Source: Acidimicrobiales bacterium (lineage in GTDB: Bacteria > Actinomycetota > Acidimicrobiia > Acidimicrobiales > Iamiaceae). From it: DNA of 10,127 bases. Below the pieces are notes generated by a model, which was not told the DNA's origin, searched no databases, and saw only the letters and a program-made list of their open reading frames with translations. Below are positions 1 through 9,905 of the stretch, piece by piece (positions within the stretch are counted from its first letter, which is position 1; each line of letters opens with the position of its first letter). The stretch lies in NCBI GenBank assembly GCA_020439605.1, contig JAGQSI010000046.1, forward strand, positions 1 through 10,127. The letters run 5' to 3'. The position numbers and the translations under genes were made by a program.

Positions 1-87
1 CTTCTCGGTGCCAAACCAGGCGACGTGATCGAGTACGAAACCCCTACTGGGGCAAGGCTCAAGGTCGAGATCGTCTCGCTCGGCTAA
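1..87 (+). CDS. greA: Transcription elongation factor GreA, C-terminal end (partial)
   Basis: The window opens inside a coding frame that ends with TAA at 85-87. The last 28 residues include LGAKPGDVIEYETPTGARL and end KVEIVSLG. This matches the end of the FKBP-like C-terminal domain of GreA: a 'GxxxGDxVxxxTPxG' turn followed by a final beta strand. GreA rescues backtracked RNA polymerase by stimulating cleavage of the transcript 3' end. The coiled-coil domain that does this lies upstream of the window. Only the tail is visible, so GreA is preferred over a GreA/GreB-like relative from the short motif alone. The gene converges on the acyl-CoA dehydrogenase gene, with 11 nt between the two stop codons. 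Confidence 0.8.
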   Translation, partial: LLGAKPGDVIEYETPTGARLKVEIVSLG

Positions 88-110
88 GCGTTCTTTGGCT
101 AAGCGTTCTT
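82..110. repeat. 14-bp tandem direct repeat at the convergent gene ends
   Basis: GGCTAAGCGTTCTT occurs at 82-95 and again at 97-110, separated by one T (15-bp period). The first copy carries the greA stop codon (TAA, 85-87). The second carries, on the minus strand, the stop codon and last residues (PKNA-stop) of the acyl-CoA dehydrogenase gene. It looks like a small slippage duplication. Before it, the two genes would have shared or nearly shared stop-codon bases. No hairpin with a T-tract is visible here, so it does not explain termination of either gene. Confidence 0.85.
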
Positions 111-1442
111 CGGGAGATCGCTGAACGGCACATTCTTGGTGTCTCCTGGTTCTTTGGGAAGCCCAAGGACACGCTCGCCAATGATGTTGCGCTGAATCTG
201 ATCAGTTCCGCCGTAGATGGGCGGTGCCTGGGCATAGAGCGCCGTGGTCGTAACTGCTCCAAGGAATGGATTGCCAGTGACCTCATTGAGCGCTGCGCTC
301 TGCTGGGTCGAATAGCCATGGAGCATGCCTGCGGGGCCGACAATCTGAAGTCCAAGGTCTCGTTGGAGGCGCACAATGTTGGACATTCCTAGTTTCGCAA
401 TGTTGCCGATTCCGGCAATGTCCTTGCCCTGGGCCCTAGCCGCCTTGGAACGCTCCGCGTTGTAACGGCCGATTTCACCCATTGTGTAGAGCTCGGCGAG
501 ACCCTGGCGCACGATCGGGTCCTTGTCGCACCCGTAGTGGCGTGCCATGCCCACGAGCATTGCTGCACTGCCGTGGTCATTCCTCTTGGCTTTGGGAGCC
601 GCTGACTTCTCGGCTTTCTTCGCAGCGGGTGCTGAAACGAAGTCCCCGGCTCGGCGATCTAGGTGACCGGCGAGGGTTCCAGGCGTTGCCCCTCCTCCAC
701 CACCTGAGCCACCAGCGCCGAGACCGGCACGCTCATGGCCAAGAGTCGAGTTGGCGACAGCCCATCCGTTGTTCAATGCCCCGATGATGTTGGCATCTGG
801 CACTCGTGCTTCGTCTATGAACGTCTCGTTGAACATGGCATGGCCAGTCATCTCTCGAAGCGGCCGAACCTCAATTCCGGGTTGGACCATCTCGATGCCG
901 AAATAGGTGATGCCTTGGTGCTTTGGCAGATCTGGATCAGTGCGAGCAATCAACATGCCAAGGTCTGCGGTCTGACCCAACGAGGTCCAAACCTTCTGCC
1001 CGGTAACAATCCATTCGTCACCATCTTTGATGGCGCGGGCGGTGAGACCTGCAAGATCCGAACCAGCCCCCGGCTCAGAGAACAACTGACACCACGCCTT
1101 TTGACCAGTGACGATGTCCTTCACGAAGGTGTCGATCTGCTCCTGGGTTCCGTGATCGGCGATTGTGGGAGCGGCCAGTAGCAGCCCGAGCCCAGATGGA
1201 GCCCCCAACGCTCCGAATGCACTGATGGCCTTGGCGATGCGCACACCCACGCTGCGAGCAACCCCACGCCCGTAGGCGTTGGTGGGCAGGGTTGGTGCCG
1301 CCCAGCCAGCCAGGCCAAGGCGCTCCCACCATTGTGAAACGCTCAGGTCTGCGTCCCAGTTATCGCTCAACCAGTCGTTCAACTCCTCTAGAAGCTCATC
1401 GCTCGAATCGGTCGAAGAAGTGGCTCCGGCAGTATCGGTCAT
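99..1442 (-). CDS. Acyl-CoA dehydrogenase family protein (FadE-type)
   Basis: Predicted 447-residue FAD-dependent acyl-CoA dehydrogenase, which introduces the alpha,beta double bond into acyl-CoA thioesters. The flavin-domain motif FSEPGAGSDLAGLTA (121-135) and WIVTGQKVWTS (144-154) are clear, as is the C-terminal signature PPIYGGTDQIQRNIIGERVL (407-426). In medium-chain enzymes the catalytic Glu sits where Gly411 is here (YEGT versus YGGT), so the base must come from elsewhere in the fold or from a partner subunit. A Gly-rich segment (242-251) resembles a linker seen in some actinobacterial FadE proteins. It is followed by a Lys/Ala-rich stretch (about 272-288). The ATG at 1442 is chosen because AGGGG lies about 6 nt upstream. 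An in-frame ATG at 1523 would place 27 unconvincing residues across the intergenic palindrome. The gene is divergent from the KAS III unit and may share its regulation. The acyl substrate is unknown. Confidence 0.9.
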   Translation of the reverse strand: MTDTAGATSSTDSSDELLEELNDWLSDNWDADLSVSQWWERLGLAGWAAPTLPTNAYGRGVARSVGVRIAKAISAFGALGAPSGLGLLLAAPTIADHGTQEQIDTFVKDIVTGQKAWCQLFSEPGAGSDLAGLTARAIKDGDEWIVTGQKVWTSLGQTADLGMLIARTDPDLPKHQGITYFGIEMVQPGIEVRPLREMTGHAMFNETFIDEARVPDANIIGALNNGWAVANSTLGHERAGLGAGGSGGGGGATPGTLAGHLDRRAGDFVSAPAAKKAEKSAAPKAKRNDHGSAAMLVGMARHYGCDKDPIVRQGLAELYTMGEIGRYNAERSKAARAQGKDIAGIGNIAKLGMSNIVRLQRDLGLQIVGPAGMLHGYSTQQSAALNEVTGNPFLGAVTTTALYAQAPPIYGGTDQIQRNIIGERVLGLPKEPGDTKNVPFSDLPKNA

Positions 1443-1575
1443 CTCAATCCCCTGAGGTTCTTGGGCACAACCCATGCGCCCTCCGGAAACTTTACTTGAC
1501 CAACCGGTCAAGTTGGAACCCAAGACACGTCGAGAGGTGTAACCTCATGAGCGTCGAATCAAGGGGCCTCATGCG
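1443..1575. promoter_or_regulatory. Divergent intergenic regulatory region
   Basis: This 133-bp region lies between the start codons of the acyl-CoA dehydrogenase (minus) and the KAS III gene (plus). It holds a ribosome binding site for each gene: minus-strand AGGGG about 6 nt before 1442, and AAGGGG at 1561-1566, 9 nt before 1576. It also holds the 18-bp palindrome at 1495-1512 and a smaller inverted repeat, GAGGT-GTA-ACCTC, at 1534-1546. On the minus strand TAAAGT (1494-1489) abuts the palindrome and could be a -10, but the matching -35 (TTCCAA, 1518-1513) is poor. No convincing plus-strand promoter was found by eye. Confidence 0.5.
1495..1512. promoter_or_regulatory. Palindrome, candidate TetR-family operator
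   Basis: CTTGACC-AACC-GGTCAAG is a perfect 7-bp inverted repeat around a 4-bp centre, lying between two divergent acyl-metabolism genes. Symmetric sites of this size are typical of TetR-family repressors, many of which control fatty-acid and acyl-CoA genes in actinobacteria. No TetR gene lies in the window, so the regulator would be encoded elsewhere. The position suggests control of the acyl-CoA dehydrogenase, the KAS III unit, or both. The symmetry is seen directly; the regulator family is inferred. Confidence 0.5.
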
Positions 1576-1579
1576 ATGA
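1547..1579 (+). CDS. Possible 10-residue leader ORF overlapping the KAS III start
   Basis: ATG at 1547 opens a 10-codon frame (MSVESRGLMR) whose TGA overlaps the KAS III ATG as ATGA (1576-1579). A weak purine stretch (GAGAGG) lies about 11 nt upstream. If translated, it could couple ribosomes into the KAS III gene. The KAS III gene has its own good ribosome binding site (AAGGGG, 1561-1566) inside this small frame, so the leader may be chance. There is no run of a single amino acid that would indicate attenuation. Confidence 0.2.
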   Translation: MSVESRGLMR

Positions 1580-2538
1580 CACGCACCCAACACATCTATC
1601 TGAGCGGATGGGGCGCATATCACCCTGAAGGACGTTTGACCAACGATGACCTCGTCGAACAGCTCGACACGTCACACGAATGGCTAGACACCCACATCGG
1701 CATCTCAGAAAGGCGCAAGGCCAGGCCTGATGAGGCGGTAGCCGAGATGAGCGCCAACGCTTCTCGGATGGCTCTCAAGCGCGCCGGGATCGGACCCGAC
1801 GATCTCGATCTCATTGTCGGAGTTACTTCCTATGACGACTATGTGGCACCGGCTTCAGGTGCTCGGGTCGGAAATCTGATCGGCTCGCAGGCGCATGCCT
1901 TCGATGTAAAGGCAGCTTGCTCTGGCTGGATGGTTGGTCTTGACGTGGCGGACTCATTTCTTCGCACGGATAAGGCCACGCGGGCCTTGGTGTGTTCTGC
2001 GGAGAAGTCCGGCATTGGGGTCAACCCGCAGGACCGCACAACTTGGCCGTTCTTCGGAGACGCCGCCGGCGCAGCAATCGTCCAAACAGAACGCCCGGAC
2101 CGAGGCCTTGAGGTGCTCACCATCAAGCGCGGATCGGACAATTCGCTATACGATGCAGTCGAGTTCCCATACGGCGGATGGTTTCGAATGGACGCACCCC
2201 GCACACGGGTCTGGGTGGAAGCCGCCATGGCCTCAATGGCAGCTGACCTTCTGGAGGAGATCGGCGCTGAGATTGGAGATCTCCGAGCCTTCGTTGCCCA
2301 TCAGGCCAATCTGAGACTGATCGAACGCATAGCCAAGGACCTCGGCGTAGACCCTGAAAAACACTGGCACAACGTTTCATGGGCGGGAAACACCGCTTCT
2401 GCTGGGGCACCCACTGCTCTATTTGGCGGGCTCGAGAAACACGAACAAGACCTGAAGGACGGCGATCTGATCCTCGTGGTCACCGTTGGCTCCGGCCTGA
2501 ATGTGCTCGGCCTCGCGCTTCGGTGGGTCTCCAACTGA
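1576..2538 (+). CDS. FabH-like 3-oxoacyl-ACP synthase III (KAS III) family protein
   Basis: A 320-residue thiolase-fold condensing enzyme, the normal length for FabH. The Cys-His-Asn triad is complete: Cys115 in AACSGWMVGL, His242 in FVAHQANLRLIE and Asn272 in WAGNTASAGAPTAL. FabH enzymes condense an acyl-CoA with malonyl-ACP to start fatty-acid chains. Relatives of the same fold instead transfer acyl groups to hydroxyls or join two acyl chains. Two departures from housekeeping FabH are visible. The segment DTSHEWLDTHIGISERR has His40 where FabH has the CoA-contacting Arg of 'TRTGI'. The C-terminal loop is GSGLNVLGLALRW rather than GxGxTWG. No ACP or other fatty-acid synthase genes are nearby. 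This points to a specialised rather than essential role. It is the first gene of a tight five-gene unit, with AAGGGG 9 nt before the start. Confidence 0.88.
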   Translation: MTRTQHIYLSGWGAYHPEGRLTNDDLVEQLDTSHEWLDTHIGISERRKARPDEAVAEMSANASRMALKRAGIGPDDLDLIVGVTSYDDYVAPASGARVGNLIGSQAHAFDVKAACSGWMVGLDVADSFLRTDKATRALVCSAEKSGIGVNPQDRTTWPFFGDAAGAAIVQTERPDRGLEVLTIKRGSDNSLYDAVEFPYGGWFRMDAPRTRVWVEAAMASMAADLLEEIGAEIGDLRAFVAHQANLRLIERIAKDLGVDPEKHWHNVSWAGNTASAGAPTALFGGLEKHEQDLKDGDLILVVTVGSGLNVLGLALRWVSN

Positions 2539-2540
2539 CG

Positions 2541-3707
2541 ATGAAGGCCCAAACCCAACCAAGACGGCCTGCACCATCTTCTGCTGCAAGTAAATCTCCA
2601 CAGCTCCCGTCCCAACCGCCGAACAACAAACGTCTAGCGCTTCAGCGGGTAGGCGGACTCGACGGGCTGCGGGTACTAGGTGCAATAGGCGTGGTTATCT
2701 ACCACACCGTCGGAGCAGTGGCAGACAGCACTCCGAAGGTGATTCAGGTTGCACCACCCATGGCATTCACCTTCTTCATCATCTCGGGGTTCGTTCTCTA
2801 CCGACCCCTAGCCAGGGCCCACATGGAACGTCGGCGCGTCCCAAGTCCAACGAGATTTTGGATCGGCAGAATCATCAGGGTCATGCCCCTTTGGTGGACG
2901 GCTGTCACCATTTACCTTTTGGTGAACGGGACGGACTCACTGAAACGTCCCATCGATTGGTTCGTCACCTACGCGAGCTTCCAATACGTGGTCAGAGATG
3001 CCCGATATGCGGTTATCGGTCCTGCGTGGGCGCTATCGGTCGAGTGGATCTTCTACATGAGCGTGCCAGTGTTTGCTCTCGCGCTTCGCTCGCTCAACCG
3101 TCGATTCTTCCCACGGGTAGAACCAGTTCGAATCCAGTTGAGCTTCCTCATTCCACTACTGATAATCACAGCGATCATCTCCACAACCCGACCTTTCATG
3201 GCAATTCTCGTAGGCATGGTCCTGTCGGTCGTGGAAATACACCAAGCGCAGACCAACAAACGTTTGGAATTGCTGCGAGTCCTCGGCTCCCCCGGTTTCG
3301 CTCTTGGAGTAACCGTGGTGGCTGCTGTTGTCCTCGCGTTCTACGAGTTCCCAAGTGGACTGTCTGTCCAGTGGCTAGAGCAAGATCCGTTCATCGTCGT
3401 CATCTGGATCGTGGTGGCCACTGCTTGGTTCGGTACCGTCGCCTTCGGCAGAGGCAATGGGATTATCACCAAGCATCTCGGGTCACCGTTGATGGCTCGG
3501 CTGAGTGTCTTGACCTTTGGCCTCTATGTTTGGCACGACCTGGTGCTGCACCAGGTCACCTCCCATCTAGGAACCGACGCCCATCTAGGCGCTGCGCTGT
3601 TTCTCACGCTGCTCGGCTCCATCCTTCTAGCCACCTTCACCTACCTGGTTATTGAGCGTCCCCTCATGAGCGTTCGATATCAGGTCAACCCTCCTGTTCA
3701 AGGCTGA
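2541..3707 (+). CDS. Acyltransferase 3 (AT3) family membrane protein, copy 1
   Basis: A 388-residue polytopic membrane protein of the AT3/OafA-like family, which transfers acyl groups (often acetyl) onto glycans, lipids or small molecules. A Pro/Ser/Gln-rich, probably cytoplasmic tail (1-36) precedes the first helix. Family motifs run in order: LDGLRVLGAIGVVIYHT (His55), IISGFVLYRP (80-89), FWIGRIIRVMPLWW (Arg110, Arg113), WALSVEWIFY (Glu168), FGLYVWHDLVLH (His332) and VIERPL (370-375). All positions usually conserved in the family are present, so the protein is probably active. The ATG at 2541, 2 nt after the KAS III stop, is chosen. A longer reading from 2379 would run through the KAS III coding sequence with unrelated, low-complexity residues. 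It is probably translationally coupled to its neighbours and is clearly paralogous to the next gene. Confidence 0.9.
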   Translation: MKAQTQPRRPAPSSAASKSPQLPSQPPNNKRLALQRVGGLDGLRVLGAIGVVIYHTVGAVADSTPKVIQVAPPMAFTFFIISGFVLYRPLARAHMERRRVPSPTRFWIGRIIRVMPLWWTAVTIYLLVNGTDSLKRPIDWFVTYASFQYVVRDARYAVIGPAWALSVEWIFYMSVPVFALALRSLNRRFFPRVEPVRIQLSFLIPLLIITAIISTTRPFMAILVGMVLSVVEIHQAQTNKRLELLRVLGSPGFALGVTVVAAVVLAFYEFPSGLSVQWLEQDPFIVVIWIVVATAWFGTVAFGRGNGIITKHLGSPLMARLSVLTFGLYVWHDLVLHQVTSHLGTDAHLGAALFLTLLGSILLATFTYLVIERPLMSVRYQVNPPVQG

Positions 3708-3709
3708 CA

Positions 3710-4915
3710 ATGAGCGATAAACAGATCTCCCGAGAACAACGACGCGCCACCTCGCTGCGCTACGTCGCTTCGCTGGACGGATTACGGGCCATCGCCGCAC
3801 TTGGCGTCGTAATCATCCACACTCAAAGCGCATCCAACGCTTCAATCGGTCTCTACATCTTCACCGGAGCCCTCGCAGGGCCCTTGTTCCTTCTGTTCTT
3901 CTCCATATCAGGGTTCGTGCTGTATCGAGGATGGGCTCGGCGCCACATGGCGATGTCCGAACGCCAACCGGCTGCGGGCTCTTTGAAGGGAAGCGCTGAC
4001 GGTGGCGCAGATGGCCGTACCTATATGTATCTGGCACGCCGCCTCCTACGCATCTACCCCCTCTACTGGGTGGTAGCAACCGCGGCACTGCTGGTCTCCG
4101 ATCAGACCTCAGGGCATTCGGCAATGGACATCATTCAGGTCTACTTCTTGTTGCCTTTCCCAAACCTGAATGCCCTAACAGATCTCGGACTAGGCATTGT
4201 TGTTTGGACCCTGCTCATAGACATCATCTTCTACGTCTATGTGACCGGTCACGCCATCGCCATGACCAAGCTCATAAAGCGATTCCGTCGCAGGTACACA
4301 CCATTTCAGATCGAATCCGCTGTGTACATCGCGATGATCTCAGTGGTCCTGATCGCCTCCCCATTCGTACGTGGCCCCCTCGTAGCACTGGCCTGTCTAC
4401 CGTTCGGAATGTGGTTTGCAGTTATAGAGGCGGAGCAGAATCGCCTAGGTCGACGCATGGCAGCCATCAATGGACTGGTGGACAGTTGGTGGCTCATTCC
4501 CATTTGCTACGCCATCCTTGGACCATCTCTGGCCTATCTCCTGCGAGACACCAAGACTCACGGCGAGTTCCTCACCAACATGTTCGGGGTCCAACTGATC
4601 CTGACCGGTGCTGCCAACTGGATGATGGTGGTGATTCTCTTCGGCAACCCCAACTGGCCGCTACAACGCTTCTTGACATCCAAAGCCATCAGGGTCGCCA
4701 GCCTCCTCACCTACGGCACATACCTGTGGCACCCGGTGGTGTTGATGCTGCTGGCACAGAATCTTCCAGACGCCAAGCTCGTCACCAACTTGGCTATCAC
4801 CGTGTTCGGATCAGTACTTCTTGCGTCCATCACATACGTCTTGGTTGAAAAGCCGTTGGCCAACATGCGTATCAAGATGAGACAACCTGAGCCCGTATCC
4901 GCCAGCACCAAATGA
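3710..4915 (+). CDS. Acyltransferase 3 (AT3) family membrane protein, copy 2
   Basis: A 401-residue multi-pass AT3 protein beginning 2 nt after the stop of copy 1. Shared motifs are SLDGLRAIAALGVVIIHT (His37), SISGFVLYRGWARRHM (65-80), RRLLRIYPLYWV (110-121), GTYLWHPVVL (His341) and YVLVEKPLANMR (376-387). Copy 1 aligns with it at each of these, so a tandem duplication is likely. Two differences stand out. The cytoplasmic loop after the SGF motif is longer and Gly/Ala/Ser-rich (about 82-103). The family's 'WSLSVExxFY' segment reads WTLLIDIIFY (166-175), replacing both the Ser and the acidic Glu (now Asp171). Activity may therefore differ, or the protein may be a non-catalytic partner. It ends in an ATGA overlap with the fusion gene. 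The acyl donor and acceptor are unknown. Confidence 0.88.
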   Translation: MSDKQISREQRRATSLRYVASLDGLRAIAALGVVIIHTQSASNASIGLYIFTGALAGPLFLLFFSISGFVLYRGWARRHMAMSERQPAAGSLKGSADGGADGRTYMYLARRLLRIYPLYWVVATAALLVSDQTSGHSAMDIIQVYFLLPFPNLNALTDLGLGIVVWTLLIDIIFYVYVTGHAIAMTKLIKRFRRRYTPFQIESAVYIAMISVVLIASPFVRGPLVALACLPFGMWFAVIEAEQNRLGRRMAAINGLVDSWWLIPICYAILGPSLAYLLRDTKTHGEFLTNMFGVQLILTGAANWMMVVILFGNPNWPLQRFLTSKAIRVASLLTYGTYLWHPVVLMLLAQNLPDAKLVTNLAITVFGSVLLASITYVLVEKPLANMRIKMRQPEPVSASTK

Positions 4916-7900
4916 CTACCTCGTCACCCCCAACAACCAACTGTGAACCAATTTCGGCTGGTGCCTGGTGCAAGCCCTTAGGGGGCTTTCGAGGCCTAGG
5001 TGCGCTCATCGTTGTTGGTGGCCACACCTTCTTTGCCTCAAGGATCTACCCGTACAACGGAGCGATCCATTTCTTGTCGATCATCGTTCCGATCTTCTTC
5101 GTCATCTCGTCTTATGCGCTATACCGTCCATTCCTTGAGGCGCAGCTGAACCAAGATCCTCAACCAAATGCGCGCTACTTCTGGTGGAAGCGGTTCTTGC
5201 GCATCTATCCCCTCTACTTTGTTGCCCTCAGCTTCTACTTGGTCCTACTACCGGGTGTACGGCCTCAAAGTGGGCGAGTAATTGATTACCTGAAGCTCTA
5301 TGGCTTCATGCAGATCTATGACCCGGATCTGGTTCGCTTCAGCGGTATCCCAGCGGCATGGTTCCTTTGTGACGAAGTCGTCTTCTACTTGCTGATTCCG
5401 TTCATCGCGATGTTCTCGGTCTGGCTTGCCAGACGGAGCCAAGACCGCAGGCGCAGTGCAAGAGCGCGCAACGCTGTTCGCGCAAACGTCAAGATCGCCA
5501 TCGGAATGATCGTCATCGGTCAGGTGTCTAGAACCTGGCTGCTGCTCATCGACTATCCGGGTGCAACCTCACTGCCTGTTTCCAACCTGGACTACTACGG
5601 CCTGGGCATACTCCTCGCAGCAGCAAGCCTCGCGGAGCGCAACTCGATGAAGATCCCTTCAGCCACCAACTGGCTGAGGCTCAGGCCAAAGGCGGCCACC
5701 GCAGTGGTCGTTATCGGCGCGATCGGAATGAACCTGATCGCCAACAAGCCGGGGCAGACGCTCTCGCGTTGGGAAGACGTGCAGCGCTATGGGCTATACA
5801 GCTTCATCACCGCACCGCTGATGGTTGTCATGGTTCTCGGGGTCCAGGACCGCTCGTTCAACCGCGTCCTCGGTTCTCCAAGATGGAACTTCTTCGCCAC
5901 TTTGTCGCTGCACCTCTACCTGTGGCATCAGTTGGTTCTCGGAGGCTTCGACCATTACATCACCGAGATAGCCAACGTTGACCTCGGCACTCGCTTCATC
6001 ACTGGCCTGGTCCTCGTAACCGGTGCTATTGCGACCACCACTGCCTGGTCCGCTCTATTGAGACCAGCGCTCGACGCCCCCTATTCACGCTGGAGCAAAC
6101 TGTTTCCCCGGCCTGGCGATCAGCCTCTGCCTCAATGGGTGAGGCCTGCTTCTTTGGCAATTGGCTGCGCAGTCCTGGTGGCAGGGGTCTGGGTGTCGAT
6201 CACCTACGGGGCCTCACCGATGAAGGCGCTAGGCGGAGTTGAGATGGTCACGGTCACCAATGCCCGCCGCGGTGACACGATCGTCATCATGACCACCGGC
6301 GCCAGTCGCAAGACTGTTGACAAGGTCGCAGTGGATGAGTTCGGGTCTGCCATTGCAAGGGAGATAGACCCGGGCCGCTACGAGGTGCGCCAGGAGCGAG
6401 GCGGACGGCTGGTGGTCAAGAGAATGACCGTGGTCAAAGGACTTGAGGATCGCCCCTCGGCTGACTTCTACCAAAGCCAGCAGTTCTCTGAAGGGCTGAA
6501 CTACATAACCACCAGAGATGGCACCAAGCTTTCCATCTACGTGGACCTGCCGGGACCTGCCTCAAAGGGCCCCTATCCAACGGTTGTGGAGCTCAGCGGC
6601 TATCGGATCGGCGACGATGAGGTCACTCAGCCCGCAACCGCAATCGCACGAGCACTTGGATACGCGACCGTTGGGGTCAACATGCGTGGATCTGGCTGTT
6701 CGGGTGGAGCATTCGAGCTGTTCAGTCCTGCACTTCTCGCCGATGGCTACGACGTGGTCGAAACTATTGCGAGCCAAGACTGGGTATCCACGAACAAGGT
6801 TGGCCTCATCGGGTTCTCCTACGGTGGCCTCGGGGCGCTAGCCGCCGCCTCCAGCGCGCCACCATCGCTGAACAGCGTCACAGCACTGAGCATCTATGGA
6901 GATGCTCGACAGGCGCTTCATCCCGGTGGGCTCAGCAATTCGGGTTTCCCGATCGGCTGGATGCAGAACCTGACTGCGGACGCAAAGCCATTTGCACCCA
7001 AGTGGGTTCAGAAGCGGGTGCAAGAGGGAGACACAACATGCAGGAACAACCAACTCCTGCACTCACAGGCAGTGGACATAGTCGAGCGCTACATGCGCGA
7101 TGTGCCACTAGATGAACGCTTCGACGACATTTCTCCGTCTGTCTGGGCCAAATCCATCAACGTTCCCGTTTTTCTTGCAGGACAGTTCCAAGACTCGACG
7201 ATCGGCAATGATCTCGCAGACCATTTCGCCAACTTCACGGCCGCCCCGCTCAAGAAGCTGGTACTCACCAACGGCACTCATGGAGACGCCATTGCCCCAC
7301 AGGTCATTTGGCGTATGGACGAGTTCCTTTCGCTGTATGTGCGCCGAGAGGTGCCTGCCAAGTTCGACCCTGGCGCAATCTTGGCCAAGACCAGACCTGG
7401 CGTGGATTCTGACCTGGTGCCCGAAGGTCCCACACCTGTTACCAGCGTCTCAGATCAGCCTTCCTTCGAAGCCGCTTTGAGCGCGTACGAGCTAACGCCA
7501 GATGTTGAGGTGCTGTTTGAGTCCGGCAACTCAGCGGTGCCCGAAGCGGCCGCCGCCGCACAGTCCCAGGGATACGCGACTTGGCCACCCAGCGAAGCAC
7601 GCACTTCGGCGCTCTATCTGGCACCCGATGGCTCTCTTGGTTCGGTGAACTCCGCCAATGCTGCATTGGCAAGATTCCGAACCAACCCGTCACTAGCGGG
7701 AGAAGCTCTCAACATCGAAGGCAGCGACCTCACAACCAACACGATGTCCAAATGGCCCCAGCCAACTACGGGGTCGGCAGCGTCGTGGATTGGCGAGCCA
7801 GCACCAACAAACCAGGCCTTGGTTGGCTCAGGAATTGTGCAGCTCTGGGTGAAGGCAGATACACCAGATGCAGATCTTCAGGCGAGCCTTTCCATGATCG

Positions 7901-8277
7901 ACTCAGCCGGCAAAGAAACCCAGATTCAAGTGGGTTGGAGGCGAATCTCCGATGCTCGTGATCAGAGGTATGAACCTGGAACTTGGACGCAGGTTCCGAT
8001 AGTTCTCGGCCCTATGGGCCAAATCATTCGTGAAGGCACCCGTCTTCGCCTGACCCTAGGAACCGCTGGAGACACCCAGGTTCAATGGAGCTTCTACCCT
8101 CCGCCCAATGGCGCATCCACCGTGCAGGTTGGCCAGGGCGGCGACTCGCCGAGCTGGATGGTGTTGCCAGTGATAGATGACTTCAAGGTGATCGCCAAGG
8201 CACCCGCATGTGGAGTGCTTCGTGGTCAACCATGTCGAGACTATGAGCCGCTCGTCAACAATGATGGGAACTCATGA
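4912..8277 (+). CDS. AT3 acyltransferase fused to CocE/S15-family alpha/beta-hydrolase
   Basis: A 1121-residue two-enzyme fusion with an ATGA-overlap start. Residues about 22-395 form a divergent AT3 membrane domain: GLGALIVVGGHTFF (His38), WKRFLRIYPLYF (92-103), AAWFLCDEVVFY (Glu155) and LHLYLWHQLVL (His339). A further helix (about 415-432) should carry the rest outside the membrane. Next comes a beta-rich segment (443-520), then FYQSQQFSEGLNYITTRDGT, which starts a CocE-like hydrolase: Tyr564 (ELSGYR, oxyanion hole), Ser636 (GFSYGG), Asp761 (GQFQDS) and His790 (NGTHGD). Residues about 860-1095 (SALYLAPDGSL, QLWVKADTPDADLQASLSM) resemble the PepX-C jelly roll. Cysteines 596, 710, 1100 and 1108 suit extracytoplasmic disulfides. 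Known relatives of the hydrolase part include cocaine esterase, amino-acid ester hydrolases and X-Pro dipeptidyl peptidases, so an ester or amide hydrolase, or an acyl transferase, is likely. No frameshift is seen at the junction. Confidence 0.88.
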   Translation: MTTSSPPTTNCEPISAGAWCKPLGGFRGLGALIVVGGHTFFASRIYPYNGAIHFLSIIVPIFFVISSYALYRPFLEAQLNQDPQPNARYFWWKRFLRIYPLYFVALSFYLVLLPGVRPQSGRVIDYLKLYGFMQIYDPDLVRFSGIPAAWFLCDEVVFYLLIPFIAMFSVWLARRSQDRRRSARARNAVRANVKIAIGMIVIGQVSRTWLLLIDYPGATSLPVSNLDYYGLGILLAAASLAERNSMKIPSATNWLRLRPKAATAVVVIGAIGMNLIANKPGQTLSRWEDVQRYGLYSFITAPLMVVMVLGVQDRSFNRVLGSPRWNFFATLSLHLYLWHQLVLGGFDHYITEIANVDLGTRFITGLVLVTGAIATTTAWSALLRPALDAPYSRWSKLFPRPGDQPLPQWVRPASLAIGCAVLVAGVWVSITYGASPMKALGGVEMVTVTNARRGDTIVIMTTGASRKTVDKVAVDEFGSAIAREIDPGRYEVRQERGGRLVVKRMTVVKGLEDRPSADFYQSQQFSEGLNYITTRDGTKLSIYVDLPGPASKGPYPTVVELSGYRIGDDEVTQPATAIARALGYATVGVNMRGSGCSGGAFELFSPALLADGYDVVETIASQDWVSTNKVGLIGFSYGGLGALAAASSAPPSLNSVTALSIYGDARQALHPGGLSNSGFPIGWMQNLTADAKPFAPKWVQKRVQEGDTTCRNNQLLHSQAVDIVERYMRDVPLDERFDDISPSVWAKSINVPVFLAGQFQDSTIGNDLADHFANFTAAPLKKLVLTNGTHGDAIAPQVIWRMDEFLSLYVRREVPAKFDPGAILAKTRPGVDSDLVPEGPTPVTSVSDQPSFEAALSAYELTPDVEVLFESGNSAVPEAAAAAQSQGYATWPPSEARTSALYLAPDGSLGSVNSANAALARFRTNPSLAGEALNIEGSDLTTNTMSKWPQPTTGSAASWIGEPAPTNQALVGSGIVQLWVKADTPDADLQASLSMIDSAGKETQIQVGWRRISDARDQRYEPGTWTQVPIVLGPMGQIIREGTRLRLTLGTAGDTQVQWSFYPPPNGASTVQVGQGGDSPSWMVLPVIDDFKVIAKAPACGVLRGQPCRDYEPLVNNDGNS

Positions 8278-9140
8278 TGGCTAAAGTCGGTGTTGCGATA
8301 GCTGATGTGGTCGACGGTGGGTGGACCTCTCTTGGCAGCCATGCCCAAGCGCTCGAGGAGTGCGGAGTGTCGGCCATTTGGCTGACCGACCATCTCTTCT
8401 GGCATCGCCCAACAGTGGATGTCATCGGCGGACTCCATACGGTGGCGGCTGCCACATCTGAATGCACCATCGGACCATGCGTGCTCCAATTGCCGTTACG
8501 TCATAGCGCTAGCACCGCGAAATCCATGTCCTATCTAGACCATGTCTCAGGTGGCCGAGTGACCGTTGGAGTTGGGGTGGGAGAACACGAGGCCGAATAT
8601 CGAGCGGCTGGGCTCGGCGACGTGTATCACCGTCGAGGCAAACTCCTTGATCAACAGATCGAAGAACTTAGACAGTGCTGGTCCAATGATCTCAATGACC
8701 CCAACAGCTCCATGTCTCCAGCTAGACCTCTACCACTTTGGGTGGGAGGACGTTCGTCAGCTGCTCGCCGCAGAGCCGCACGAACAGGCGATGGCTGGTG
8801 TCCTCACATAGTGAGAGAGCCTTGGGTTCGAAAGCAACATCAACGCCTCGAAGCAGACCTGGCCGCTGAGGGTAGGCACAGAGATGAAATCACTTTTACC
8901 CCGGCGCTTGCTTTCGCAGTAGAGAACGCGGTTGCAAACGAAGACCCCTACGAGTGGTTCTCACAGTTGTTCAACCTTCCCACCCAGGTGTTCGAACCCA
9001 ACATTGTGGTTGGCAGTCCCAGCCAGATTGCCGAAGAAATCTCTGCGATGTTCGAAGCTGGAGCAGACCAGGTCACCTTTTTCCCTGGAACCAGCCAGCC
9101 TGCAGAACATGTCGCTCGAGTTATCGAGGCTCTCGGCTAG
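8274..9140 (+). CDS. LLM-class flavin/F420-dependent oxidoreductase
   Basis: A 288-residue luciferase-like TIM-barrel oxidoreductase. Recognisable segments are LEECGVSAIWLTDHLFW (28-44), SYLDHVSGGRVTVGVGVGEH (86-105) followed by EAEYRAAGL, LPLWVGGRSSAARRRAARTG (153-172) followed by DGWCP, and the C-terminal EISAMFEAGADQVTFFP. The layout fits the F420-dependent branch common in actinobacteria, whose members reduce or oxidise alcohols, C=C bonds or imines. An FMN-dependent enzyme cannot be excluded. The start overlaps the fusion gene's stop (ATGATGG with TGA at 8275-8277). Either of two adjacent ATGs (8274 or 8277) could be used. It is the last gene of the unit and presumably a soluble cytoplasmic enzyme acting on the acyl group or acceptor handled by the unit. 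The substrate is unknown. Confidence 0.87.
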   Translation: MMAKVGVAIADVVDGGWTSLGSHAQALEECGVSAIWLTDHLFWHRPTVDVIGGLHTVAAATSECTIGPCVLQLPLRHSASTAKSMSYLDHVSGGRVTVGVGVGEHEAEYRAAGLGDVYHRRGKLLDQQIEELRQCWSNDLNDPNSSMSPARPLPLWVGGRSSAARRRAARTGDGWCPHIVREPWVRKQHQRLEADLAAEGRHRDEITFTPALAFAVENAVANEDPYEWFSQLFNLPTQVFEPNIVVGSPSQIAEEISAMFEAGADQVTFFPGTSQPAEHVARVIEALG

Positions 9141-9239: not shown

Positions 9240-9905
9240 CTAGTTCTCTCCGAGCACCTGCTCGATAGCAGCCGCGGCAGCGAGAACGGGTTCACCGAGT
9301 CGCTCACCTAGGTTCTCCCCCACCCGTCCGAGCGGACCAGAGATCCCAATTGCAGCCAGAAGCGCTCCGTCTAGATAGACCGGGGCACTCAACGATGCTA
9401 CTCCTGGGGCTCTTTCCTCTAGAGATACACACCATTTCTGCGGTGTTGTCTCCCCCGCTAGGAGCCGACCAGCAGATCCCACTCCAAGAGCCAGGCGCGC
9501 CCCCTGCGCCACGATTGTTCGCAACTCGTGTGATCCTTCGAGCGAAACCAGACATACGCGATGGTCGCCATCTTTGATGTACATCTGCACGCTCTCGCCT
9601 GTCAGTTGCTGCAGCTCAACAAGCATCGGCCGCGCCAACACCGCCAGCCGCGCGTTCTCATCAACCAACCGCCCAAGTCTCCCAAGGGTCCCACCAAGTT
9701 CGTAATTGCCGTTGGGACCGCGCCGCAACAAACCGTGTGCTTCCAAGGCCGATGCCAGCCGGTGAAGGGTGGGTTTTGGTATGTCAGTTCGAGAGACAAG
9801 ATCAGGTAGAGAACATGACCGGCCGCTAACTGTCGCCTCAGCAACTGCATCAATGATCCTTATTGACTTGTCTAAAACGCCAACACCGCTTACCCTGTGT
9901 TCCAT
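9240..9905 (-). CDS. ndgR: IclR-family regulator, NdgR/LtbR type
   Basis: A 221-residue IclR-family transcription factor. The N-terminal winged helix-turn-helix covers about residues 6-70, starting SGVGVLDKSIRIIDA and including LPDLVSRTDIPKPTLHRLAS. The effector domain follows from about 85 and includes LTGESVQMYIKDGDHRVCLV and ERAPGVASLSAPV. The SGVGVLDK start and PGVAS-SAPV block match what I recall of Streptomyces NdgR. The divergent leuC is the known neighbour of NdgR and of Corynebacterium LtbR, which represses leuCD and leuB. The effector domain appears about 20 residues shorter than NdgR between GSAGRLLAGE and EERAPGVA. No Shine-Dalgarno precedes the ATG. The promoter -10 is only 8 nt away, so the message is probably leaderless. 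Autorepression through the palindrome in its own promoter is likely. Confidence 0.85.
   Translation of the reverse strand: MEHRVSGVGVLDKSIRIIDAVAEATVSGRSCSLPDLVSRTDIPKPTLHRLASALEAHGLLRRGPNGNYELGGTLGRLGRLVDENARLAVLARPMLVELQQLTGESVQMYIKDGDHRVCLVSLEGSHELRTIVAQGARLALGVGSAGRLLAGETTPQKWCVSLEERAPGVASLSAPVYLDGALLAAIGISGPLGRVGENLGERLGEPVLAAAAAIEQVLGEN

What the first reader, a model, noticed from the sequence alone, without database searches (positions are those of the whole stretch)
4912..8277. AT3 acyltransferase fused to a complete CocE/S15-type serine hydrolase
One uninterrupted frame joins a multi-pass AT3 domain, an extra transmembrane helix (about 415-432) and a large hydrolase with its putative Tyr564, Ser636, Asp761 and His790 in the expected motifs, plus a PepX-C-like end. 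The established precedent is AT3-SGNH (OafB-like), where an eleventh helix places an SGNH esterase fold outside the membrane. Here an unrelated alpha/beta-hydrolase takes that place. This suggests convergent evolution of a two-step relay, in which AT3 presents an acyl group across the membrane and a serine hydrolase transfers or removes it. I am not aware of this architecture having been characterised.
Basis: partly seen in the sequence, partly recalled or inferred. Interest (0 to 1): 0.75.

Follow-up and report, generated by a model that had tools for sequence, protein, structure and literature searches.

The report
Membrane acyltransferase fused to outside hydrolase
A bacterial gene makes one protein that joins a membrane enzyme, of a kind that passes acyl groups through the membrane, to a large serine hydrolase that very probably sits outside the cell; it resembles known two-part surface-acylation enzymes but uses an unrelated second part, and it lies in a conserved cluster with more such membrane enzymes.

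Summary
Observation confirmed. Window 4912-8277 is one 1121-aa frame: AT3 domain, an 11th transmembrane helix, a linking domain, a CocE/S15 hydrolase and PepX_C. It is no assembly error: 18 further full-length fusions, 44-62% identical, with AT3 and hydrolase motif residues invariant in 19 of 19. The hydrolase is very probably outside: 11 hydropathy peaks with alternating positive-inside loops, the same four cysteines and no others in 19 of 19 hydrolase parts, helix 11 in 19 of 19 fusions but 0 of 5 hydrolase-less relatives, lipobox-like or hydrophobic N-termini in 82 of 99 standalone relatives. New: a tight operon (KASIII, AT3, AT3, fusion, LLM oxidoreductase, facing IclR) is conserved in two more genomes, and a second AT3 type is adjacent or fused upstream in 9 of 10 readable cases. 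Most likely AT3 presents an acyl group outside and the hydrolase transfers it; removal is the main rival; neither is shown. My paper searches listed no description of this architecture. New variant of a known kind, rare in the genomes searched.

The parts
4912..8277 (+). AT3-CocE/S15 fusion protein, 1121 aa
   Evidence: open frame; Pfam and NCBIfam domains over cut-off; 18 other full-length fusions
4984..6060 (+). Acyl_transf_3 domain, residues 25-383, 10 predicted helices
   Evidence: Pfam; family-averaged hydropathy and loop charges; R27-X10-H38, R94-X2-R97, S332-X3-Y336 invariant in 19 of 19
6148..6204 (+). 11th transmembrane helix, residues 413-431
   Evidence: hydropathy; present in 19 of 19 fusions, absent in 5 of 5 hydrolase-less relatives tested
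6229..6486 (+). linking domain, about residues 440-525 (limits by eye), also present in standalone exported relatives; fold not assigned
   Evidence: alignments; most order-level standalone matches begin at model positions 415-442; no Pfam hit for residues 432-533
6517..7284 (+). Peptidase_S15 / CocE hydrolase domain, residues 536-791
   Evidence: Pfam; matches to solved structures include a CocE/NonD hydrolase, cocaine esterase and alpha-amino acid ester hydrolase
6601..6603 (+). Tyr564, putative oxyanion tyrosine
   Evidence: invariant in 56 of 56; aligned with Tyr44 of cocaine esterase; role recalled
6817..6819 (+). Ser636, putative nucleophile (GFSYGG)
   Evidence: invariant in 56 of 56; aligned with Ser117 of cocaine esterase; role recalled
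7192..7194 (+). Asp761, putative catalytic acid
   Evidence: invariant in 56 of 56; no firm alignment to a solved structure
7279..7281 (+). His790, putative catalytic base
   Evidence: invariant in 56 of 56; no firm alignment to a solved structure
7489..8094 (+). PepX_C domain, residues 860-1061
   Evidence: Pfam
3710..4915 (+). AT3b, N-type AT3; its stop overlaps the fusion's start (ATGA)
   Evidence: Pfam; junction; trees
2541..3707 (+). AT3a, another AT3 (start placed by me just after the KASIII stop; the mechanical ORF begins at 2379)
   Evidence: Pfam; junction; trees
1576..2538 (+). beta-ketoacyl-ACP synthase III-like protein, first gene of the operon
   Evidence: Pfam; NCBIfam models below their cut-offs; Cys, His and Asn motifs present (roles recalled)
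8274..9140 (+). luciferase-like oxidoreductase, start overlaps the fusion's stop
   Evidence: Pfam; NCBIfam F420-dependent models below their cut-offs; conserved downstream in two other genomes
9240..9905 (-). IclR-type regulator, convergent with the operon
   Evidence: Pfam; in the same place in two other genomes; next to an AT3-AT3 gene in a third

Best explanation
A membrane enzyme of surface acylation. The 10-helix AT3 domain takes an acyl-CoA-type donor from the cytoplasm and presents the acyl group at the outer face (inferred from AT3 homology and invariant motifs). Helix 11 carries the CocE/S15 domain across the membrane, so that Ser636 works outside (well supported by sequence). Ser636 most likely takes up the acyl group, or an acylated intermediate, and passes it to a glycan or glycolipid acceptor (inferred). 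The fusion works together with N-type AT3 partners encoded just upstream, and the KASIII-like enzyme may supply a special acyl chain (inferred from the conserved operon). My estimates: topology 0.95, functional link to the neighbouring AT3s 0.8, acyl transfer through Ser636 0.45.
For: Domains. 19 fusions including the window's, with AT3 motif and hydrolase residues invariant. 11 hydropathy peaks in residues 1-440 and positive-inside alternation: presumed inside loops sum to about 28 K+R, outside loops to about 8. The same four cysteines and no others in 19 of 19 hydrolase parts. Helix 11 in 19 of 19 fusions and 0 of 5 hydrolase-less relatives of the same AT3 clade. 82 of 99 standalone relatives have a lipobox-like (52) or other hydrophobic (30) N-terminus. 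Operon conserved, with overlapping start and stop codons. Successive AT3 modules are fused in other lineages: AT3a-AT3x in two genomes, AT3x-type with fusion-type AT3 in P0026 and P0027. 15 positions distinguish the fusions from 32 generic standalone hydrolases, 7 of them within 7 residues of Ser636 or Asp761 (no control run). Precedents: AT3-SGNH proteins need both domains (PMC7448272, passages); Chp2, a membrane-anchored alpha/beta-hydrolase acting outside, is an acyltransferase (PMC4183827, passages).
Against: No structure model, so no evidence that Ser636 can reach the AT3 outlet; about 100 residues lie between helix 11 and the hydrolase. The first 70 residues after helix 11 are not poor in positive charge (10.6 K+R, 9.5 D+E), and two hydrolase parts reach a hydropathy (1.65, 1.66) like the weakest helix 11 (1.6). 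The generic standalone relatives have the same linking domain, and only 2 of 20 loci examined show a (weak) AT3 match nearby, so that domain is no adaptation to AT3. P0022-P0025 are separate hydrolases nested among the fusions. G005 has a fusion-type AT3 without hydrolase and without an N-type AT3 beside it on its short contig, so the AT3 can exist alone. No acceptor or acyl group is known.
Confidence: 0.45

Rival explanations
1. Editing enzyme: AT3 and its partners acylate a surface molecule, and the tethered hydrolase removes or trims acyl groups. The two halves act on the same product in opposite directions.
For: The putative triad is complete, and the best matches among solved structures are CocE/NonD hydrolase and cocaine esterase. 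Standalone relatives look exported and mostly lie away from AT3 genes, so they are presumably hydrolytic. Hydrolase-less AT3-AT3 proteins exist, one of them beside the same kind of IclR regulator, so acylation apparently does not need the hydrolase.
Against: Opposing activities in one chain in 19 of 19 are odd unless regulated; residues near the active site changed in the fused clade, which editing would allow but does not require.
Confidence: 0.3
2. Co-anchoring only: the AT3 domain and the hydrolase have separate substrates, and the fusion merely holds the hydrolase at the membrane in a coregulated pathway.
For: The unit of linking domain plus hydrolase is the same as in standalone exported relatives; separation appears to have occurred again at least once.
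Against: A single helix would anchor the hydrolase; the AT3 motifs are invariant in 19 of 19 fusions, so AT3 is not a mere anchor; the fusion persists down to 44% identity.
Confidence: 0.15
3. The hydrolase domain acts on amide or amino-acid ester bonds (like X-Pro dipeptidyl-peptidase or alpha-amino acid ester hydrolase), for example on an exported peptide or antibiotic.
For: Peptidase_S15 and PepX_C domains; alpha-amino acid ester hydrolases among the matches to solved structures.
Against: Xaa-Pro dipeptidyl-peptidase model far below its cut-off, 24.6 against 642 bits; CocE/NonD and cocaine esterase score higher than the ester hydrolases and peptidases.
Confidence: 0.1

Closest known systems
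AT3-SGNH acyltransferases (OafA, OafB, OatA, PglI)
   Same: AT3 with R-X10-H and RXXR motifs, 10 helices, an 11th helix, a serine-esterase-type domain outside, conserved cysteines
   Different: the outside part is a linking domain plus S15/CocE hydrolase plus PepX_C, about 690 residues after helix 11; no SGNH family was among the hits
Exported CocE/NonD hydrolases (TIGR00976)
   Same: linking domain, S15 domain, PepX_C, the conserved cysteines, the catalytic residues
   Different: fused behind an AT3 domain instead of a signal peptide; clade-specific residues near nucleophile and acid
VanT (AT3 plus racemase) and NRF-AT3 proteins
   Same: other AT3 fusions with a second domain
   Different: the second domain is unrelated, in VanT cytoplasmic, in NRF proteins N-terminal (PMC12423673, passages)
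Chp2 of mycobacteria
   Same: membrane-anchored alpha/beta-hydrolase acting outside as an acyltransferase
   Different: cutinase-like motif, one helix, no AT3 domain; acylated trehalose is donor and acceptor (PMC4183827, passages)

Membership tests
AT3 (PF01757) | profile match above the curated cut-off | tested here: met
   74.6 bits against 31, profile positions 6-324 of 326; among relatives P0015 gave no hit at E 0.001
AT3 (PF01757) | R-X10-H in helix 1 and RXXR in helix 3 | tested here: met
   R27, H38, R94, R97 invariant in 19 of 19; motif definition from PMC9833829, section 9
AT3 (PF01757) | FXXXXXL in helix 2 (named in the paper as a conserved region, not as defining) | tested here: not met
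   by eye the stretch is FVISSYAL, with Ala at the Leu place and Leu one residue later; SXXXY in helix 9 is met by S332 and Y336
AT3 (PF01757) | 10 transmembrane helices | tested here: met
   10 peaks before helix 11 in family-averaged hydropathy with window 17 and a threshold of 0.75 that I chose; the single sequence at 1.4 gave only 7; no structure model
AT3-SGNH | SGNH domain after the AT3 domain | tested here: not met
   no SGNH family among the Pfam or NCBIfam hits
AT3-SGNH | 11th helix placing the second domain outside | tested here: met
   inference from sequence, no reporter data
AT3-SGNH | both domains needed for acyl transfer | not testable with these tools
   needs an experiment
CocE/NonD hydrolase (TIGR00976) | profile match above the curated cut-off | tested here: met
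   114.8 bits against 66.3; best stretch covers profile positions 2-271 of 550
CocE/NonD hydrolase (TIGR00976) | Ser nucleophile and oxyanion Tyr | tested here: met
   invariant in 56 of 56 and aligned to cocaine esterase
CocE/NonD hydrolase (TIGR00976) | Asp and His of the triad | tested here: inconclusive
   invariant in 56 of 56, but alignments to solved structures there are weak and disagree
X-Pro dipeptidyl-peptidase | match to the Xaa-Pro dipeptidyl-peptidase model above cut-off | tested here: not met
   24.6 bits against 642

The most novel reading that the evidence does not exclude
The operon encodes a heteromeric transmembrane acyl-transfer machine: paired N-type and C-type AT3 modules, found side by side or fused in several combinations (AT3a-AT3x, AT3x-AT3c, AT3c-hydrolase), hand an unusual KASIII-made acyl chain across the membrane to an S15/CocE hydrolase that evolved into the terminal acyltransferase, independently of the SGNH solution.
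Probability: 0.3. Interest if true: 0.78.

Novelty: new variant of a known kind. Interest (0 to 1): 0.58.

Why it matters
[quoted passage not shown] A second, unrelated serine enzyme in the place of SGNH would be an independent test of the idea that the outside serine carries the acyl group. The paired AT3 modules raise the question whether some AT3 proteins work as heteromers; one paper search for tandem or paired AT3 found nothing on it. The family also offers natural variants with and without the hydrolase and helix 11.

Tried and rejected
Assembly error: rejected; 18 further full-length fusions, two of which match the copies in genomes G010 and G007. Cytoplasmic hydrolase: rejected on helices, charges, cysteines and relatives. 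Generic standalone hydrolases as partners of AT3 genes: a weak AT3 match (54 and 62 bits) at only 2 of 20 loci; contigs as short as 3.3 kb and queries limited to 10 AT3 sequences make this a lower bound. Linking domain: no Pfam family. Defence link: PADLOC gave nothing for the fusion, AT3a, AT3b or KASIII and one weak oxidoreductase hit for the LLM gene. Plasmids: 0 of 144 matching records cover 80% of the query. AT3 part against solved structures: no match at E up to 1. Promoter and terminator scan: 1 promoter-like and 7 terminator-like sites, against shuffle means of 2.6 and 5.2.

Spread: full-length fusions in 3 of 99 genomes of the relatives set, 3 of 24 of the family, 2 of 397 of the order and 1 of 395 of the class. 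These sets overlap and all include the window's own genome. Searches used strict E-value limits (1e-150, 1e-165, 1e-190), and searches scored at most two candidates per genome. The profile search of the large protein set gave no further fusion, with only the 8000 candidates sharing most words scored. The genome-contig scan with the single protein found no relative; with the alignment it gave 11 loci, two of them full fusions that match G007 and G010.

Rows dropped or chosen: A2 holds 37 standalone hydrolases that I picked from those listed; one search lists the best 120 of 282 proteins. The hydrolase tree used 26 of the listed separate hydrolases, with P0021 cut to 520 residues because its tail looked out of frame; it is midpoint-rooted. 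The second AT3 tree left out four fusion rows (P0002, P0005, P0010, P0017) and warns of long branches, L100_n among them. The 99 proteins are the listed ones of 650-900 aa except the AT3 proteins; 17 of 99 showed neither signal, and several of those look truncated. A strict pattern missed RXXR in AT3a and P0121_c, although by eye both have it, and found no SXXXY in P0121_c and P0122_c. The positions were chosen at 84% or more in the fusions and 80% or more in the other 32.
Full report
WHAT IS THERE. The window is G000:C410:1-10127 of a genome that is about 70% complete. Window 4912-8277 is one frame of 1121 aa. Pfam gives Acyl_transf_3 at residues 25-383, Peptidase_S15 at 536-791 and PepX_C at 860-1061, all above the curated cut-offs; NCBIfam gives CocE_NonD above its cut-off. 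A profile of that alignment pairs the Tyr and Ser with Tyr44 and Ser117 of cocaine esterase (numbers counted from the printed alignment, roles recalled). Asp761 and His790 rest on conservation: the stretches that reach them in solved structures are weak and disagree. On the AT3 side the motifs R-X10-H, RXXR and SXXXY (PMC9833829, section 9) are R27/H38, R94/R97 and S332/Y336, invariant in 19 of 19 fusions; the FXXXXXL stretch of that paper is not matched exactly.

IT IS A REAL FUSION FAMILY. A protein search found 18 other full-length proteins, 44-62% identical over 98-100%. For one of them, P0015, Pfam did not report the AT3 domain, but it is 50% identical over 94% of residues 1-440. A second search with the profile gave the same set and no further fusion, with only the 8000 candidates sharing most words scored. 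In genomes, full-length copies were seen in three, G000, G007 and G010, all of one genus in the tool's kinship table. Searches of 397 genomes of the order and 395 of the class gave two and one full-length fusions, the window's own included, at strict limits and with at most two candidates scored per genome. The family is real and, in these sets, rare.

TOPOLOGY. Family-averaged hydropathy of the 19 fusions over residues 1-440 shows 11 peaks at a threshold that I set: 10 in the AT3 part and one at 414-430. The single sequence at a higher threshold shows 8, the last at 413-431. K+R sums in loops alternate, about 28 over the presumed inside loops and about 8 over the outside ones; the part after helix 11 has 51 K+R against 82 D+E, though its first 70 residues are near balance. 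Each of the 19 hydrolase parts has exactly four cysteines, at positions 596, 710, 1100 and 1108; 37 standalone relatives have these too, with one exception at 710, and 18 of the 37 have just four, 16 have six. Helix 11 is present in 19 of 19 fusions and absent in 5 of 5 relatives of the same AT3 clade that lack the hydrolase: P0026, P0027, P0121, P0122 and the AT3 of G005. Of 99 standalone relatives, 52 have a lipobox-like motif, 30 another hydrophobic N-terminus and 17 neither. Together this places the hydrolase outside.

THE NEIGHBOURHOOD. The operon reads KASIII-like (1576-2538), AT3a (2541-3707), AT3b (3710-4915), fusion (4912-8277), LLM oxidoreductase (8274-9140), with a convergent IclR gene (9240-9905) and a divergent acyl-CoA dehydrogenase (99-1523). 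The starts of the fusion and of the LLM gene overlap the preceding stops, and the same is seen in G010 and G007. G010 has the same order with one more AT3, here called AT3x; identities are 79, 67, 55, 58, 60, 52 and 54% for dehydrogenase, KASIII, AT3a, AT3b, fusion, LLM and IclR. G007 has the same genes on two contigs: dehydrogenase, KASIII, AT3a and the start of AT3x on one, and the rest of AT3x, AT3b, fusion, LLM and IclR on the other. AT3a and AT3x lie in one frame without a stop in both G010 and G007.

TWO AT3 TYPES THAT GO TOGETHER. In the trees AT3b, AT3x and the N-terminal halves of AT3-AT3 proteins form one group, with AT3a beside it, and the fusion's AT3 and the C-terminal halves form another (starred supports; 100/99 for the second). 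P0027 is an AT3x-like half (45% to that of G010, the match running just past the gene's own stop) followed by a fusion-type AT3. In G003 one frame holds an AT3-AT3 protein: its second half falls at the base of the fusion-type group, its first half at the base of the group that holds AT3a and the N-types, on a long branch. In G008 such a protein, cut by the contig end after 38 matching residues of its second half, lies next to an IclR gene 57% identical to the window's. Counting the fusion-type AT3s whose upstream side I could read (window, G010, G007, P0026, P0027, P0121, P0122, G003, G008, G005), an N-type AT3 is directly upstream or fused in 9 of 10; G005 is the exception, on a short contig. 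For the other 16 fusions the upstream side was not readable. The pattern suggests that the two types work together; the count is small and the genomes are related.

HISTORY OF THE HYDROLASE. The hydrolase parts of the 19 fusions and six proteins listed as separate hydrolases (P0020-P0025; P0021 looks broken) form one clade (100/100), and P0022-P0025 form a supported group nested among the fusions. So the fusion probably came first and was split later, although the tree is midpoint-rooted and inner forks are not all firm. Fifteen positions separate the fusions from 32 generic standalone hydrolases, and the split members mostly share the fusions' residues; 632, 638, 640 and 642 lie near Ser636, and 758, 763 and 768 near Asp761 (no control run). 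The surroundings of the active site therefore changed when, or before, the fusion arose.

HOW IT PROBABLY WORKS. Supported by sequence: the motif residues of both parts are kept, and the hydrolase is outside. Taken from AT3 work: AT3 presents an acyl group at the outer face (PMC9833829: abstract and outline, sections 7 and 9, and the first part of section 11), and in AT3-SGNH proteins both domains are needed (PMC7448272, passages). Inferred here: Ser636 takes over the acyl group and passes it on, or removes it. An exported alpha/beta-hydrolase that acts as acyltransferase is known in mycobacterial Chp2 (PMC4183827, passages), so transfer by such a fold has precedent. Against a direct relay: about 100 residues lie between helix 11 and the hydrolase, the same linking domain occurs in standalone exported relatives, and the split forms suggest that tethering can be lost.

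WHAT IS KNOWN. The passages that I saw of two papers name SGNH as the commonest partner of AT3, and racemase (VanT) and NRF as others (PMC9558356, 12 of 16 places; PMC12423673); no S15 or CocE fusion is named in them. Paper searches for AT3 with SGNH and OafB, with CocE, with peptidase S15, with the two Pfam numbers, with alpha beta hydrolase, and with abhydrolase names listed no paper whose title or abstract start describes the architecture; I did not read all listed papers, and the library holds open-licence papers only. Some automatic names in the protein set already mention both halves ('predicted acyl esterase/peptidoglycan/LPS O-acetylase OafA/YrhL'), so the architecture is visible in databases.

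VERDICT. Observation confirmed. Interpretation partly supported: architecture and topology yes, relay plausible but open. A new variant of a known kind, in an unexpected setting of several AT3 genes.

Noticed in passing
window 99-1523 (-): The acyl-CoA dehydrogenase carries a Gly/Ala/Lys-rich insert after a GHERAGLGAG stretch; a similar but diverged insert is in the G010 copy.
   Followed up: partly
L099 (G005:C209), 1-1239 (+) and about 1172-5081 (-): An N-type AT3 is convergent with what look, by eye, like an MBOAT gene and an SGNH-like gene: parts of another acyl-export pathway beside an AT3 of this type. No domain search was run on them.
   Followed up: no
L054 18043-19851 (-): A Peptidase_S9 hydrolase lies about 4.5 kb beyond the IclR gene in G010; probably unrelated.
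   Followed up: no
L006 1426-2970 and L105 2395-3939 (G005:C245): A fusion-type AT3 of 514 aa ends in a Pro/Arg/Gly-rich tail instead of helix 11 and hydrolase.
   Followed up: partly
genomes: Several relatives have many matches to the fusion, up to eight in one genome, mixing AT3 and exported CocE/NonD hydrolase matches.
   Followed up: no
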